From assembly GCA_021730945.1 (NCBI GenBank), contig JAKFYH010000031.1:1-63399 (forward strand): DNA of 63,399 nucleotides, written 5' to 3'. Below, piece after piece: positions 26,470-31,252 of this stretch; position 1 is the stretch's first letter, and each line of letters opens with the position of its first letter. The stretch comes from Acidobacteriota bacterium. Lineage in GTDB: Bacteria; Acidobacteriota; Vicinamibacteria; Vicinamibacterales; UBA2999. The notes under the pieces are model-generated. The model was not told where the DNA came from. It did not search any database and saw only the letters and a list, made by a program, of their open reading frames with translations. The position numbers were made by a program, and so were the translations under genes.

Positions 26470-26581
26470 GCATTCAGATGACCTGGCGCCGCGGATTCCG
26501 GCCAGGCCGGAGGCTGGGTTCCGCCGACGTTGCGGCCCGGTCACCGGCTTAACTGTGGCAGAATCGGCAGACCCAATCACC

Positions 26582-28081
26582 ATGACGACACCCACTGCCC
26601 AGGACCGCGCCTTTTTCGGCCACCCGCGTGGCCTGTCCACGCTGTTCTTCACCGAGATGTGGGAACGCTTCAGCTACTACGGCATGCGGGCGTTGCTGCT
26701 GCTCTACATGACCGCGCCGTTGTCGGCGGGCGGACTGGGGTTCGACGCCGCGCAGGGCGGCGCCGTCTACGGGCTCTACACCTCGATGGTCTACCTGGCG
26801 ACCATGCCCGGTGGCTGGATCGCGGACCGGTTGATCGGTCCGCGCCGCGCCGTGCTGTACGGCGGCATCATCATCGCCGCCGGCCACTTCAGCATGGCGG
26901 TGCCGTCGCTGGCGACGTTCTATCTCGGCCTGTTCCTGATTGTGATCGGCACCGGCCTGCTCAAGGGCAACGTCAGCGTCATCGTTGGCAAGCTCTACGG
27001 CGCCACCGACATCCGCCGTGATGCCGGCTTCTCGATTTTCTACATGGGCATCAACCTCGGCGCGTTTCTGGCGCCGCTGGTGTGCGGCTACCTGGGACAG
27101 CAGGTGAGCTGGCACCTCGGGTTTGCCGCGGCCGGCGTCGGCATGCTGATTGGCGTCGTCCAGTATGTGATGGGCGCGAGCAACCTTGGTGAGGCCGGCA
27201 TCGATCCGGCGCCGGCCCCGACGCCGGAGATTGCCGCGCAGTGGAAGCGCCAGGTGCAGACCTGGGTTGGCGGCAGCGCCGTTCTGGTGGTGGTAGCCGC
27301 ACTGGCAGCCTACTTCGGTCTGCTACAGGTGTCGGCGACCGAGGTCAGCGATGGCGCCGGGGTGTTTCTGCTGCTGGTTGTCGTCGGCTTTTTCGGCTGG
27401 CTGATGTTCTCGGGCGGCTGGACACCTGAGGAGAAGAAGCGCCTGTATGTCATCGCGGTCCTGTTCTTCGCGGCGTCGCTCTTCTGGTCGGTGTTCGAGC
27501 AGGCGGGATCGACCTTGAACCTGTTTGCCGACCGCAGCACGCGCAACCAGGTGCTGGGCATGGCCTATCCCAGCAGTTGGTTTCAGTCGATGAACTCGCT
27601 GTTCATCTTCGCGTTCGCGCCGGTCATCGCGTGGCTGTGGATCAAGATGGCGTCGAGCGGCAAGGAGCCGACCAGCCCGACCAAATTTGGCTTCGGCCTG
27701 ATCTTCGTCGGCGCCGGATTTCTGATTCTGATCATCCCGGCCCGCCTGGCGGAGCAGGGGACCCTGGTCAGTCCGATGTGGCTGACGGCCACTTACTTTC
27801 TGCACACCATCGGTGAACTGGTGCTGAGCCCGGTTGGGTTGAGTGCCATGACCACGCTGGCGCCGGCGCGGATTGCCGGCCTCATGATGGGCGTGTGGTT
27901 CCTGGCCACCTCGGTTGGCAACTTCATCGGTGGCCGCGTCTCGGGCCTCTACGAATCATTCGCCCTGCCCACGCTGTTCGGCGTCGTCGCGGCCTTTGCC
28001 ATCGTGGCCGGGTTAATCCTGCTGGCGCTGGTGCCGTCGATGCGCCAGTTGCTGCCGGCTCAGACCGGGAAGGCGAAATAG
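26582..28081 (+). CDS. POT-family peptide transporter
   Basis: A 499-residue proton-dependent oligopeptide transporter (PTR2/POT, MFS). The N-terminus contains the diagnostic TEMWERFSYYGMRALLLLYM (ExxERFxYYG proton-coupling motif). Many hydrophobic segments follow, including FYMGINLGAFLAPLVCGYLG, FFAASLFWSVFEQAGSTLNL and a late helix SPVGLSAMTTLAP. ATG 26582 is preferred to an in-frame GTG at 26555. The radical SAM gene starts only 28 nt downstream on the same strand, so co-transcription is likely; the transporter may move the substrate or product of those enzymes. Confidence 0.93.
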   Translation: MTTPTAQDRAFFGHPRGLSTLFFTEMWERFSYYGMRALLLLYMTAPLSAGGLGFDAAQGGAVYGLYTSMVYLATMPGGWIADRLIGPRRAVLYGGIIIAAGHFSMAVPSLATFYLGLFLIVIGTGLLKGNVSVIVGKLYGATDIRRDAGFSIFYMGINLGAFLAPLVCGYLGQQVSWHLGFAAAGVGMLIGVVQYVMGASNLGEAGIDPAPAPTPEIAAQWKRQVQTWVGGSAVLVVVAALAAYFGLLQVSATEVSDGAGVFLLLVVVGFFGWLMFSGGWTPEEKKRLYVIAVLFFAASLFWSVFEQAGSTLNLFADRSTRNQVLGMAYPSSWFQSMNSLFIFAFAPVIAWLWIKMASSGKEPTSPTKFGFGLIFVGAGFLILIIPARLAEQGTLVSPMWLTATYFLHTIGELVLSPVGLSAMTTLAPARIAGLMMGVWFLATSVGNFIGGRVSGLYESFALPTLFGVVAAFAIVAGLILLALVPSMRQLLPAQTGKAK

Positions 28082-28109: not shown

Positions 28110-29561
28110 GTGCGGGTAGTTCTCGTCAGCACTTACGATCTGGGACGCCAGCCGTTTGGCCTGGCGTCGCCGGCCGCGTGGTTGAGGCGGGCCGGCTTTC
28201 AGGTGACCTGCGTCGACCTGTCGCGCGAGAAACTCGACGCGGTGCTCGTGGCTGAGGCGGGCCTGGTGGCCTTCTATCTGCCCATGCATACGGCCACGCG
28301 GCTGGCCATGCCGGTCATCGCCAGAATACGCGCGAGCCATCCCATCCTCCTGATCGCAGCCTATGGCCTCTATGCGCCACTGAATGAAGCGTTGCTGCGT
28401 GAGCACGGCGTCTCGATCGTGCTCGGCCCGGAGGCCGAAGCCGATTTGGTCGCGGCGGCCACGTCCTTGAGTGCCATCGGCACCGTGGCATCCGCCTTCG
28501 CTCGCGAACATCACTCCAGCGAGCTATGGCGAGACCTCGCCGTAGCGGCCTCCGGCCGCGTAGGCGGGCCCTTGGCACCTGAGATGGTGTTGCCCCGCTT
28601 GGCGTTCATTCAGCCGGACCGGACCGGTCTGCCGGCACTGGAGAACTACGCCAGTTTGCAGATGCCAGACGGCAGCCGCAAGACTGTCGGCGCCACCGAC
28701 GCCACGCGCGGGTGCAAGCACCGCTGCCGGCACTGTCCGATCGTGCCGGTCTACGACGGGCAGTTTCGCGTGGTTCCGGTCGATGTGGTGATGGCCGACG
28801 TCCGGACCCTGGTGGCGCAGGGCGCCACGCACATCAGCTTCGGCGATCCGGACTTCTTGAATGGTCCAGGCCACGCCCGCAAGCTGATGGAGGCCCTGCA
28901 CGCCGAATTCCCGTCACTCACCTACGACGTGATCATCAAGGTTGAGCACTTGCTGCGGCATCGCGACTTGCTGGAGCCTCTGGCCCGCACCGGCTGCCTG
29001 TTTGTGACGAGCGCCGTCGAAGCCGTGGACGACGAGGTACTGGCCAAGCTGGACAAGGGCCATACCCGAGCCGGCTTTGTCGAGGCCGCAACGCTTTGTC
29101 GCGCTGCGGGCCTCACGCTGGTCCCGACCTTTGTCGCGTTCACGCCGTGGACCACGCTCGATGGGTATCGCGACCTGCTCGACGTGGTGGAGGCGTTGGA
29201 CCTGGTGGCCAACGTCGCTCCGGTGCAGTGGGGGATTCGGCTGCTGGTGACCTGGCAGTCGCGTCTGTTGGAGTTGCCGGACATTCAGGCGGTAGTGGGC
29301 CCCTTCGACTCGCGCTCGTTGACGTTTCCGTGGCGCCATCCCGACCCGCAGGTGGATGAACTCCAGGCGCACGCGATGGCCATCGCCGGCGCGGCCATTC
29401 ACGGCGGCCGCCACGAAGTGTTCGAGGCGATTCGCAGCCTTACGCGATCACCACATCGCGAGGTCACAAGACCGCCAAATCCGCGGACGGCAATCCCGTA
29501 CTTGAACGAACCCTGGTACTGTTGAGCGGAACCCACCGCAGAGCAGGTGGCTCTGTTATGA
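28110..29561 (+). CDS. Radical SAM selenoprotein, CUAEP tail
   Basis: A radical SAM enzyme read here as 483 residues through an in-frame UGA. The N-terminal half resembles a cobalamin-binding Rossmann part (VVLVSTYDLGRQPFGLASPAAW). The 4Fe-4S motif is Cys202, Cys206 and Cys209 in RGCKHRCRHC, followed by a SAM barrel (HISFGDPDFLNG). The frame reaches NEPWYC, then TGA at 29523-29525, then Ala-Glu-Pro and eight more residues to TGA 29559-29561. That stop overlaps the next ATG as ATGA. A SECIS-like stem follows the UGA. I recall CUAEP/CCAEP-tail radical SAM proteins as a named family of unknown function. If UGA is a stop, the product has 471 residues, ends at Cys471 and the gene ends at 29525. 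The start is GTG. Confidence 0.86.
29538..29556 (+). promoter_or_regulatory. Putative bacterial SECIS element
   Basis: In the mRNA, GCAGAGC (29538-29544) pairs with GCUCUGU (29550-29556) in a 7-bp stem with one G-U pair, exposing AGGUG. The loop begins 19 nt after the UGA at 29523-29525. Bacterial SECIS elements are known for a short stem placed about 16-37 nt behind the UGA with a G at the first or second loop position, as here; the loop GGU also resembles the E. coli fdhF loop. It lies inside the extended reading frame. Confidence 0.72.
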
Positions 29562-30865
29562 CGCTTCCACTCGATGCGCGGGAGGCACGGCCCGGACAGC
29601 CCCGCGTGCTGCTGCTGGCCATGACCACCGGCTACCAGACCCGCATGTTCGGCGAGGCCGCGGCGGCCCTCGGCGTCGAGCTGATTTACGCGACCGATCG
29701 CTGCGATCAACTGGACGATCCGTGGCGGGACGGCGCCATCCCCGTTCGGTTTCACGAGGAATGGCGCTCAGTGGACGCCGTCCTCAAGGCGCTTGAGTCA
29801 CGGCCGGTGTCGGGCGTGCTGGCAGTGGGCGATCGCCCCAGCGTGATGGCGGCGTCGATCGCGCGACTCCTGGGTTTGCCCGGCCACTCCACCGAAGCCG
29901 CCGCCATTGCCCGTGACAAGCGTCTCTCGCGCGAGCGCCTGCGGGCGTCAGGATTGCCGGTGCCAGAATTCCAGGCCGTGCCGGCCGGCGTCGACCCGGC
30001 CACCCTGCTCGCGGGCCTTACCTTCCCGGTCGTCATCAAGCCCACGGTTCTGTCGGGTAGCCGCGGGGTGATTCGCGCCGACGATGCGCTGAGTTTTGTG
30101 ACGGCGTTTGACCGCGTGCGCCGGATGTTGGCGTCGAGCGACATTCGCGAGCTGCACGATCCTGAGTCGGATGTGATCCAGATCGAGTCATACATCCCTG
30201 GCAGCGAGTACGCCCTGGAGGGCCTGCTCGATCACGGCGCGTTCCGCACGCTGGCGATGTTCGACAAGCCCGATCCGCTTGACGGCCCCTTCTTCGAGGA
30301 GTCGATTTACGTCACGCCGTCACGGGTGAATCCCGGCATCCAGCAGCAGATCGCCGCCGCCGTGGAGCGCGCGGCCGCGGCCATTGGTCTGCACCACGGT
30401 CCGGTGCATGCCGAATGCCGCGTCAACAGCCGTGGCGTCTACCTCCTGGAGGTGGCGGCGCGTCCCATTGGCGGCCTCTGCGCCAAGGTGCTGCGCTTCG
30501 TGAAACCAGGCGAACCCACGATTGGCCTCGAGCAGTTGATCCTGCGGCAGGCGATTGGCGAGTCGACGGCCGATTGGACGCGCGAGGCAGCGGCCTCGGC
30601 GGTGATGATGATCCCCATTCCGCGCAGTGGCGTCTTTCGTGGCGCCGCCGGAATCGAAGAGGCCAGGGCCGTGGCCGGCGTCGATGAAGTGCTGATTACC
30701 GCGAAAGCCGACCAGCACCTGCTGGCACTGCCGGAGGGGGCGAGCTACCTGGGATTCATCTTCGCACGCGCCGCCTCGCCGGAAGCGGCGGAGCAGGCCG
30801 TGCGAACCGCGCATGAGCGCCTGCGGGTGACCATCGATCCCTGGCTGGAAGTCCTGAACCAGTAG
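29558..30865 (+). CDS. ATP-grasp ligase-like protein
   Basis: A 435-residue ATP-grasp enzyme. An N-terminal Rossmann-like part (PRVLLLAMTTGYQTRMFGEAA) precedes the ATP-grasp fold: LTFPVVIKPTVLSGSRGV for nucleotide binding, and HAECRVNSRGVYLLEVAARPIGG for the metal site. Relatives join carboxylates to amines or thiols, including L-amino acid ligases. ATG 29558 overlaps the read-through stop of the radical SAM gene. In the alternative where UGA is a stop, this ATG would sit 32 nt downstream. The pairing suggests the two enzymes make or modify a small peptide-like metabolite; this is inference. Confidence 0.88.
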   Translation: MTLPLDAREARPGQPRVLLLAMTTGYQTRMFGEAAAALGVELIYATDRCDQLDDPWRDGAIPVRFHEEWRSVDAVLKALESRPVSGVLAVGDRPSVMAASIARLLGLPGHSTEAAAIARDKRLSRERLRASGLPVPEFQAVPAGVDPATLLAGLTFPVVIKPTVLSGSRGVIRADDALSFVTAFDRVRRMLASSDIRELHDPESDVIQIESYIPGSEYALEGLLDHGAFRTLAMFDKPDPLDGPFFEESIYVTPSRVNPGIQQQIAAAVERAAAAIGLHHGPVHAECRVNSRGVYLLEVAARPIGGLCAKVLRFVKPGEPTIGLEQLILRQAIGESTADWTREAAASAVMMIPIPRSGVFRGAAGIEEARAVAGVDEVLITAKADQHLLALPEGASYLGFIFARAASPEAAEQAVRTAHERLRVTIDPWLEVLNQ

Positions 30866-30922: not shown

Positions 30923-31252
30923 CTATTTCGCCTGGGGCGGCACGAAATCGGGCGGCAGGGCCGACCCTTCGCCGAAGAAGAAGTCTTCCATGTGCTTGCG
31001 GATGAGCTCCTGGCCTTCCTTCTGCCAGGGCATCAGCCGATATTCGTTGAGGATCATCTTCTGCCGATCCTCCCAGAGCTTCCAGGCCTGCGCCGACACG
31101 TTCTCGTAAACGCGCTGGCCGATTTCGCCGGGCCACGGCGCCGCGTCGAGTCCGGGCAGCTCTTTCTGCAACTTCACGCACTGAACCGTGCGGCCCGACT
31201 TGTTGGTGACTGGTTGGTTGCTCGGACCGGTGGGTCCCCCGCACATGCTCAT
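30923..31252 (-). CDS. yggX: Fe(2+)-trafficking protein YggX
   Basis: A 109-residue member of the YggX family, small proteins linked to iron supply and protection of Fe-S clusters from oxidation. The core is plain: RTVQCVKLQKELPGLDAAPW, PGEIGQRVYENVSAQAWKLWEDRQ (in segments), MILNEYRL and KHMEDFFFGEG. The ATG at 31252 is chosen over the longer frame because GGAGG stands 9 nt before it. About 18 residues precede the family's usual start (MSMCGGPTGPSNQPVTNK). It is convergent with the ATP-grasp gene and near an Fe-S radical enzyme, which may be chance. Confidence 0.88.
   Translation of the reverse strand: MSMCGGPTGPSNQPVTNKSGRTVQCVKLQKELPGLDAAPWPGEIGQRVYENVSAQAWKLWEDRQKMILNEYRLMPWQKEGQELIRKHMEDFFFGEGSALPPDFVPPQAK

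What the first reader, a model, noticed from the sequence alone, without database searches (positions are those of the whole stretch)
28110..29561. Probable selenoprotein: radical SAM enzyme with a Cys-Sec-Ala-Glu-Pro tail
The frame ends NEPWYC and then meets TGA at 29523. Read as selenocysteine it gives C-U-A-E-P plus eight residues and stops at TGA 29559-29561, which overlaps the ATG of the ATP-grasp gene as ATGA. A 4-bp overlap is the kind of gene junction seen elsewhere in this window (18851, 38805, 41340) and would be a coincidence if TGA 29523 were a true stop. The Cys-Sec pair invites a selenenylsulfide or metal-binding role. I recall CUAEP/CCAEP-tail radical SAM proteins as a named family of unknown function, which I could not check.
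Basis: partly seen in the sequence, partly recalled or inferred. Interest (0 to 1): 0.93.

Follow-up and report, generated by a model that had tools for sequence, protein, structure and literature searches.

The report
Selenocysteine-tailed radical SAM enzyme
This bacterium very probably reads an apparent stop codon as selenocysteine to finish an enzyme of unknown function, and the enzyme's relatives and gene partners suggest it makes an unusual amino acid that a second enzyme then builds into a dipeptide.

Summary
TGA 29523-29525 is in frame; read-through gives NEPWYC-U-AEPTAEQVALL, ending at TGA 29559-29561, which overlaps the ATP-grasp start as ATGA. The protein belongs to NCBIfam NF040546 (596 bits, cut-off 500), an already named family whose description gives no function. 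Of 99 class loci examined, 95 have a readable tail: 71 TGA, 24 TGC, nothing else. SelA is over cut-off in 66 of 71 TGA and 12 of 24 TGC genomes. The genome has selA, selB, tRNA-Sec and a SelD that itself carries UGA. A hairpin with loop AG(G/U)U follows the UGA beyond a codon-shuffle null in 64 of 85 TGA loci and 1 of 34 Cys loci. What is added here is a functional lead. The nearest family is ArsL (arsinothricin synthesis), whose C-terminal CC aligns with Cys-Sec. The gene goes with a BL00235-like L-amino acid ligase: 99 class genomes have both, 5 only this enzyme, 3 only the ligase. ArsL-type clusters also carry ATP-grasp genes (7 of 8 opened). I propose ArsL-like transfer of a SAM fragment giving an unusual amino acid that is ligated into a dipeptide. 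Chemistry and substrate are inferred; almost no arsenic genes stand nearby.

The parts
28110..29561 (+). Radical SAM selenoprotein gene (483 residues with Sec472), GTG start, final stop TGA 29559-29561
   Evidence: NF040546.1 596.3 bits against cut-off 500
28713..28736 (+). CX3CX2C motif (Cys202, Cys206, Cys209), [4Fe-4S]/SAM site
   Evidence: invariant in 29 and in 71 aligned members and in the 4 ArsL-type proteins
29523..29525 (+). UGA read as selenocysteine (Cys471-Sec472)
   Evidence: TGA/TGC only in 95 readable class loci; Sec machinery in the genome
29538..29556 (+). Probable bacterial SECIS hairpin: stem 29538-29544 / 29550-29556, loop AGGUG 29545-29549
   Evidence: searches (codon-shuffle null; folding z-scores) for the set of loci. 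For the window alone it is the inner hairpin of the fold (z -1.9); a shorter stretch folds otherwise (z -1.2)
29558..30865 (+). ATP-grasp ligase of the L-amino acid ligase type (ATP-grasp_4 + LAL_C2), overlaps the rSAM stop by 4 bp
   Evidence: nearest solved structure by sequence 3vot BL00235, 122.9 bits; co-occurrence
26555..28081 (+). POT-family peptide:H+ symporter, 28 nt upstream of the rSAM gene
   Evidence: TIGR00924 445.6 bits, PF00854; a homolog is found in 40 of 61 class loci, 32 of them on the opposite strand, and in 18 of 80 loci of the wider scan; may be synteny
30935..31192 (-). YggX-type Fe(2+)-trafficking protein, the only copy found in this genome; may be synteny
   Evidence: found in 48 of 61 class loci and 40 of 80 of the wider scan

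Best explanation
The gene encodes a selenoprotein: UGA 29523 is decoded as Sec with the help of the hairpin just downstream (strongly supported by sequence, not shown by experiment). The enzyme is a radical SAM protein on the scaffold of ArsL. I infer that it uses its [4Fe-4S] cluster and SAM to transfer a SAM-derived group, most likely 3-amino-3-carboxypropyl (ACP), onto a soft small acceptor held by the mobile Cys-Sec tail, giving an unusual methionine-like amino acid. The product is then joined to a second amino acid by the co-encoded ATP-grasp ligase (a relative of BL00235, which makes Met-Gly and Met-Met), and the resulting dipeptide, or a related peptide, may be handled by the neighbouring POT transporter. 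Supported by data: Sec coding, family, gene pair, ligase type, kinship with ArsL. Inferred: ACP chemistry, acceptor, tail as ligand, dipeptide product, transport.
For: Family: NF040546 596 bits; second is ArsL NF040542 at 254 bits over residues 4-422; the third family scores only 45 bits; all 71 members of A2 hit both NF040546 and NF040542 at E 1e-10 or better. Sec: UGA column TGA 71, TGC 24, other 0 of 95 readable class loci; selA 522 bits, selB over cut-off, ARAGORN tRNA-SeC (tca), selD with in-frame TGA in SCAG-U-ASK; SelA over cut-off in 66 of 71 TGA against 12 of 24 TGC genomes (hand tally), Fisher p 1.5e-5. SECIS: 6.31 of 7 pairs observed against 4.44 in the codon-shuffle null for 85 TGA loci, 64 with P<0.05; 3.74 against 3.44 and 1 of 34 for Cys loci. 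Tail: E467, W469, C471, C/U472, A473, E474, P475 invariant in 71 members behind a variable linker (model pLDDT 55 at 451-460, 86 at 461-470, 78 at 471-480); the CC of ArsL's RCCLKC aligns with Cys-Sec. Ligase: of 193 class genomes 99 have both genes, 5 only the rSAM, 3 only the ATP-grasp, 86 neither (hand tally; Fisher 2e-44; genomes are related). Where the wider scan showed no ligase near the rSAM although more than 500 bases of contig followed (22 of 80 loci), 20 of these 22 genomes hold one elsewhere, at 38-56% identity. Nearest solved relative is BL00235, which makes Met-Gly and Met-Met (PMC6920838, passages). ArsL-type plasmid clusters carry an ATP-grasp gene in 7 of 8 opened (several from the same genera), homologous to the window's in the 3 compared.
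Against: No ars cluster was seen near the 142 CUAEP loci scanned (60 + 80 relatives in part the same, T. roseum, window): the ArsR, ArsB, ArsQ, ArsN1, aquaporin and other queries gave no hit, with one ArsC-like hit (L119) and one weak ArsM-like hit (L141) (divergent ArsR could be missed). So the acceptor is probably not arsenite, and the ACP step rests on kinship at 27-32% identity. In the ArsL paper's abstract ACP transfer is itself called predicted, and the passages I saw discuss only the CX3CX2C cysteines of B. gladioli ArsL (PMC8552651), so a role of ArsL's tail is not established in what I read. The closest solved fold is AprD4, a diol dehydratase. The ATP-grasp superfamily is large: homology between the two sets of ligases is distant (24-28% identity), and LAL_C2 is below its cut-off in two of the three ArsL-cluster proteins and absent in the third. 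The ligase is missing in G191 and in the genomes of L181 and L188; none was annotated within 8 kb in T. roseum. Outside the class the two genes are often unlinked; in 3 distant class members the ATP-grasp is on the opposite strand. SelA is absent or below cut-off in 5 of 71 TGA genomes, whose completeness is 74-92%, and present in half of the TGC genomes.
Confidence: 0.45

Rival explanations
1. Redox-arm model: the Cys-Sec tail is a mobile thiol/selenol pair, as in the GCUG tail of mammalian thioredoxin reductase (recalled), that gives a hydrogen atom or electrons to a substrate radical made by ordinary 5'-deoxyadenosyl chemistry and is re-reduced through a selenenylsulfide. The product may still be an amino acid used by the ATP-grasp ligase.
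For: Sec and Cys interchange at one column at least 13 times on the tree, 7 or more on well supported branches, as expected for a redox residue; vicinal pair on a conserved tail behind a variable linker; closest solved fold AprD4, a dehydratase that I recall uses 5'-deoxyadenosyl chemistry.
Against: ArsL, the nearest family by about 200 bits over the next, has a CC-x-x-C tail in an arsenic setting, which fits ligand binding at least as well. Of the recurrent class neighbours that I annotated (10 cluster representatives, 6 with a Pfam hit: LigD_N, CofD, OmpA, SSF, Omp85/POTRA, TPM) none is a thiol reductase; four gave no hit and further clusters were not annotated, so a partner reductase is not excluded.
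Confidence: 0.3
2. Arsenic model: it is an arsinothricin-like enzyme, making a trivalent arsenic amino acid and its dipeptide, in organisms that keep their ars genes elsewhere.
For: ArsL kinship and ATP-grasp genes in ArsL-type clusters.
Against: Almost no ars genes near 142 CUAEP loci, whereas all 8 RCCLKC loci opened, of 16 found, have one or more arsenic-related genes within 5 kb (in one of them, an ArsR/SmtB-type regulator only); the distribution is broad and housekeeping-like (90 of 193 class genomes over cut-off).
Confidence: 0.12
3. UGA 29523 is a true stop and the protein ends at WYC; the downstream AEP resemblance is a relic.
For: The gene table that I saw for the Thermomicrobium roseum record ends its relative at WFC.
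Against: AEP (once VEP) kept after TGA in 71 class loci, only TGA/TGC/TGT at the column, SECIS-like hairpin specific to TGA loci, Sec machinery in the genome; in T. roseum the TGA is also followed by AEP.
Confidence: 0.02

Closest known systems
CUAEP/CCAEP-tail radical SAM (seleno)protein, NCBIfam NF040546
   Same: Full-length match 1-467 of 468, 596 bits over a cut-off of 500; Cys-Sec-Ala-Glu-Pro tail
   Different: Nothing essential. It is a member; the family description shown names no function
ArsL, arsinothricin biosynthesis radical SAM protein (RCCLKC tail), NF040542
   Same: Collinear over residues 4-422, CX3CX2C, W-x-H-x-D...D-x-L segment, vicinal C-terminal Cys pair, frequent ATP-grasp neighbour
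   Different: 254 bits is below the family cut-off of 450; tail CUAEP instead of RCCLKC; Sec in place of Cys; almost no ars genes around
L-amino acid ligase BL00235 (PDB 3vot), for the partner ATP-grasp protein
   Same: Homology over residues 36-424, 122.9 bits, shared GPFFEE segment; LAL_C2 domain in the window's protein
   Different: Goes with a radical SAM selenoprotein; substrate unknown
AprD4 (6fd2), radical SAM diol dehydratase
   Same: Closest solved fold, Z 26.7, 404 residues aligned at 3.8 A
   Different: 20% identity; sequence hit E 6e-8 over 172-365 only
Other radical SAM selenoprotein families in a 2026 review (TIGR04167; TrsS NF045646)
   Same: Radical SAM proteins with Sec (PMC13188914, passages)
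   Different: Other families and motifs; NF040546 has no occurrence in that paper's main text

Membership tests
NF040546 CUAEP/CCAEP-tail radical SAM (seleno)protein | HMM score over the curated cut-off across the full length | tested here: met
   596.3 against 500 bits, profile 1-467 of 468 (Sec given as Cys)
NF040546 CUAEP/CCAEP-tail radical SAM (seleno)protein | C-terminal C-[U/C]-A-E-P | tested here: met
Bacterial selenoprotein | In-frame UGA aligned with Cys in relatives | tested here: met
   71 TGA, 24 TGC of 95 readable
Bacterial selenoprotein | selA, selB, selC, selD in the genome | tested here: met
Bacterial selenoprotein | SECIS hairpin directly downstream of UGA | tested here: met
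   for the set of loci; single-sequence folds of the window have z -1.9 and -1.2, and the second shows another structure. Computed only; no SelB-binding test
Bacterial selenoprotein | Selenium in the protein | not testable with these tools
   needs 75Se labelling or mass spectrometry
Radical SAM superfamily | CX3CX2C motif and Radical_SAM domain | tested here: met
   PF04055 53.7 bits; C202/C206/C209 invariant
ArsL NF040542 | HMM score over 450 bits | tested here: not met
   254.3 bits
ArsL NF040542 | RCCLKC tail | tested here: not met
   CUAEP tail; only the vicinal pair aligns
ArsL NF040542 | ACP transfer from SAM to As(III) | not testable with these tools
   needs biochemistry
B12-dependent radical SAM enzymes | B12-binding domain over the gathering score | tested here: not met
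   PF02310 17.6 bits against 32.1; the model still aligns over its N-terminal part with B12-dependent enzymes
L-amino acid ligase (partner protein) | ATP-grasp fold with LAL_C2 domain | tested here: met
   PF13535 108.6, PF18603 54.0 bits
L-amino acid ligase (partner protein) | Dipeptide synthesis | not testable with these tools
   needs biochemistry

The most novel reading that the evidence does not exclude
A selenium-dependent counterpart of arsinothricin synthesis, common in one probably acidobacterial class: a Cys-Sec-tailed radical SAM enzyme moves the 3-amino-3-carboxypropyl group of SAM onto a soft acceptor other than arsenite (for example a selenium, sulfur or metal species), and an L-amino acid ligase turns the product into a conserved dipeptide of unknown role, possibly linked to iron handling through the nearby YggX. 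It would be a new class of natural dipeptide and, as far as I recall, the first selenoprotein in ACP-type radical chemistry.
Probability: 0.22. Interest if true: 0.85.

Novelty: new member of a known kind. Interest (0 to 1): 0.58.

Why it matters
The family is named, but no function is given in its description, and the open library that I searched has no paper with its name. The kinship with ArsL, the near-perfect co-occurrence with a BL00235-type amino acid ligase, and ATP-grasp genes in ArsL clusters together give a testable pathway: which SAM product is released, and which amino acid the ligase activates. It also shows how a gene caller can end such a protein just before its most conserved residues; the T. 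roseum entry looks like an example.

Tried and rejected
True stop: rejected (codon column, SECIS, Sec machinery). Alternative code (TGA as Trp or Gly): not tested separately; the alternatives at the column are Cys codons, and the final stop of this gene and the ATGA junctions checked end with TGA. Arsenic substrate: lowered, because almost no ars genes stand near CUAEP loci. YggX and POT as dedicated parts of the pathway: left open. YggX is the only copy found in this genome and is close by, but it occurs in 152 of 193 class genomes and lies beside the ATP-grasp gene also in G083, G185 and G189, which lack the rSAM (read off). LigD_N- and CofD-type genes recur in the same class neighbourhood (20 and 16 of 61 loci), so class-wide synteny can explain such neighbours. 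In L141, L155 and L169 of the wider scan YggX instead lies upstream of the rSAM. A first neighbour clustering was spoiled by antisense ORFs of GC-rich DNA and was replaced by tblastn. Single-sequence folds of the window's hairpin were not conclusive. The Rfam scan of the window gave only one tRNA. In fold search pdb_via the best rows are AprD4, MgmA, OxsB and TsrM; ArsL is not listed, which excludes nothing. Two papers of Haft and colleagues on new selenoprotein families are not held, so I cannot say whether CUAEP is discussed there. Searches of the held library for CUAEP (0 papers) and for RCCLKC, NF040546, CCAEP (5 papers with the letters ccaep, by title unrelated; listing only) found nothing; no paper in it holds both arsinothricin and ATP-grasp. 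Listings were not followed up.

Rows dropped or not opened: of 104 class genomes that I count as holding the rSAM, 6 with only N-terminal fragments (G059, G064, G078, G117, G161, G188) were not opened. In one search, 3 of 80 loci have no readable tail (L131, L152 contig ends; L166, the same contig as L210). In one search, 4 of 38 (L200, L228, L231 contig ends; L210 a run of N); 2 more (L227, L236) show the TGA tail in another frame than the BLAST hit and are counted as TGA. In one search, 7 of 77 usable loci were left out by hand (L110, L129, L154, L160, L168, L171, L183). Identical or N-holding segments were removed (138 to 119) and duplicates (138 to 127). Sets L050-L109/L200-L237 and L110-L189 overlap in part (for example L086 and L110 are one contig) and are not independent. 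Of 16 ArsL-type plasmid hits 8 were opened. One search did not include L200-L237.

Full report
WHAT IS THERE. The gene at 28110-29561 (+) reads in one frame from GTG to TGA 29523-29525 and, if that TGA is read through, goes on for 12 residues to TGA 29559-29561, sharing four bases with the ATG of the next gene. The tail is NEPWYC-U-AEPTAEQVALL. The protein scores 596 bits against NCBIfam NF040546, 'CUAEP/CCAEP-tail radical SAM (seleno)protein' (cut-off 500, nearly the whole profile).

IS UGA READ AS SEC? Five lines agree. (1) Codon column: besides the window I opened 98 loci in 97 genomes of the 193-genome class search. Where the tail can be read the codon is TGA in 71 and TGC in 24, with no other codon in 95 of 99; a wider scan of named genomes gave TGA 53, TGC 18, TGT 6 in 77 readable of 80 loci. 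The sets overlap in part. (2) Machinery: selA (522 bits), selB over cut-off, an ARAGORN tRNA-SeC with anticodon tca, and selD in the window's own genome; its selD itself has an in-frame TGA in SCAG-U-ASK. (3) Across the class, SelA is over cut-off in 66 of 71 genomes with TGA but 12 of 24 with TGC (hand tally, Fisher p 1.5e-5; genomes are related, so the p value overstates independence). (4) RNA: positions 16-22 and 28-34 (or 27-33) from the UGA pair around the loop AG(G/U)U. For 85 distinct TGA loci 6.31 of 7 pairs form on average against 4.44 when synonymous codons are shuffled, and 64 loci have P below 0.05 against their shuffles; in 34 Cys loci the figures are 3.74, 3.44 and 1. Folding z-scores agree (-1.11 against 0.02). 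The better of two registers was taken for observed and null alike. The loop resembles that of the E. coli fdhF SECIS as I recall it. For the window alone the folds are modest. (5) On a quick tree built without the tail, Sec and Cys forms interchange at least 13 times, 7 or more of them on well supported branches. The relative in Thermomicrobium roseum is listed as ending at WFC, but its TGA is followed by AEP too.

WHAT KIND OF ENZYME. The CX3CX2C motif and a Radical_SAM domain are present. The second-best family by sequence is ArsL, the arsinothricin enzyme, at 254 bits over residues 4-422; everything else is at 45 bits or below, and all 71 aligned members show both hits. Four ArsL-type plasmid proteins align at 27-32% identity, and their C-terminal RCCLKC (8 of 8 read) places its CC on the Cys-Sec pair. 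The predicted structure is confident (mean pLDDT 91.4); residues 451-460 are a weak linker (55), the tail region is better predicted again (86 at 461-470, 78 at 471-480). The closest solved folds are AprD4 (Z 26.7) and, next, MgmA, OxsB and TsrM. The B12-binding Pfam model is not reached (17.6 against 32.1 bits).

THE PARTNER GENE. The gene that overlaps the rSAM stop encodes an ATP-grasp protein with an L-amino acid ligase C-terminal domain; its best solved relative by sequence is BL00235 (122.9 bits), which makes Met-Gly and Met-Met (PMC6920838, passages). In the first 61 class loci it is found in 57; the 4 without it have at most 145 bases of contig left; in three distant loci it lies on the other strand. 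Among 193 class genomes I count 99 with both genes, 5 with the rSAM alone (4 of them fragments or contig ends; G191 is a real absence), 3 with the ATP-grasp alone and 86 with neither (hand tally; 14 rSAM fragments of 100 bits or more counted as present; Fisher 2e-44). In the wider scan the ligase is within the fetched stretch in 53 of 80 loci, among them records labelled Betaproteobacteria, Tectomicrobia and Methylomirabilota/NC10. Of the 27 others 5 end within 200 bases of the rSAM; the remaining 22 genomes were searched whole, and 20 hold one ligase relative elsewhere at 38-56% identity (one of them in two pieces); the genomes of L181 and L188 hold none. So the two genes go together even where they are not neighbours. 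A POT peptide transporter is nearby in 40 of 61 class loci, mostly divergent, and YggX in 48 of 61; both may be synteny.

A LINK NOT MET IN THE PAPERS SEARCHED. Of the 16 ArsL-type plasmid hits I opened 8. Seven have an ATP-grasp gene within 5 kb, and all eight have one or more arsenic-related genes (ArsR-type regulators, ArsM, ArsN1 or transporters; one, only an ArsR/SmtB-type regulator); three are Priestia and two Pantoea, so they are not eight independent cases. The three ATP-grasp proteins compared are homologous to the window's, but distantly (E 2e-14, 9e-21 and 6e-21; LAL_C2 below its cut-off or absent). No paper in the library holds both 'arsinothricin' and 'ATP-grasp', and CUAEP occurs in none. 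So ArsL-type and CUAEP-type enzymes share a plan: a radical SAM enzyme with an amino acid ligase-like partner.

MECHANISM. In the ArsL paper the enzyme is predicted to cleave SAM to a 3-amino-3-carboxypropyl radical and attach it to As(III), giving a glutamate-like amino acid (PMC8552651, abstract, section 5 and passages; that arsL is required is the heading of a section that I did not read). I propose the same type of reaction here with another acceptor, held by the Cys-Sec pair, followed by dipeptide formation. That a Met-type ligase is the constant partner fits an ACP-derived product. Against it: almost no arsenic genes near 142 CUAEP loci, no biochemical evidence, and an equally simple redox-arm reading of Cys-Sec. 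I give 0.45 to the pathway statement as a whole; the Sec reading alone deserves about 0.97.

NOVELTY. The protein is a new member of a named family, so it is not a new kind. The proposed function, the ligase pairing and the ArsL comparison are the new part as far as my searches reach, and they can be tested at the bench.

Noticed in passing
L017 (own genome G000 contig C34:15882-16808): SelD of this genome is itself a probable selenoprotein: in-frame TGA in the motif SCAG-U-ASK.
   Followed up: partly
L192, L193, L194, L196-L199: RCCLKC-tail (ArsL-type) radical SAM clusters on plasmids of Alicyclobacillus, Priestia, Pantoea and Klebsiella carry an ATP-grasp gene near arsenic-related genes, which hints at peptides of arsinothricin-like amino acids.
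   Followed up: partly
L190:7935-9371: The listed protein of Thermomicrobium roseum (WP_012643191.1) ends at WFC; TGA is followed by AEPLEDPSGPVASQVRMVDQPLR, so the entry is probably truncated at a Sec codon (the table seen may not show recoding).
   Followed up: yes
window 30935-31192 (-): The only YggX (Fe(2+)-trafficking) gene found in the genome lies beside the ATP-grasp gene, as in 48 of 61 class loci; it may be synteny or a functional link.
   Followed up: partly
G032 contig C16:2688-3980: The ATP-grasp match in this relative is listed with one in-frame TGA; not looked at: sequencing error, wrong frame or a further recoding.
   Followed up: no
genomes G131, G124, G141, G136, G140, G142: Six Cys-form genomes carry SelA proteins that score 569-605 bits with matches ending near position 445, where most others end near 453 at lower scores; perhaps a separate SelA subtype.
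   Followed up: no
L227, L236: Two relatives show the tail in another frame than the matched part of the gene, which suggests frameshifts in the assembly or broken copies.
   Followed up: no
L126, L131, L134: Some named records that carry the gene (labels Bifidobacterium breve, Acidimicrobiia, Betaproteobacteria) are metagenome bins; the labels may be wrong, so phylum counts from names are unsafe.
   Followed up: no
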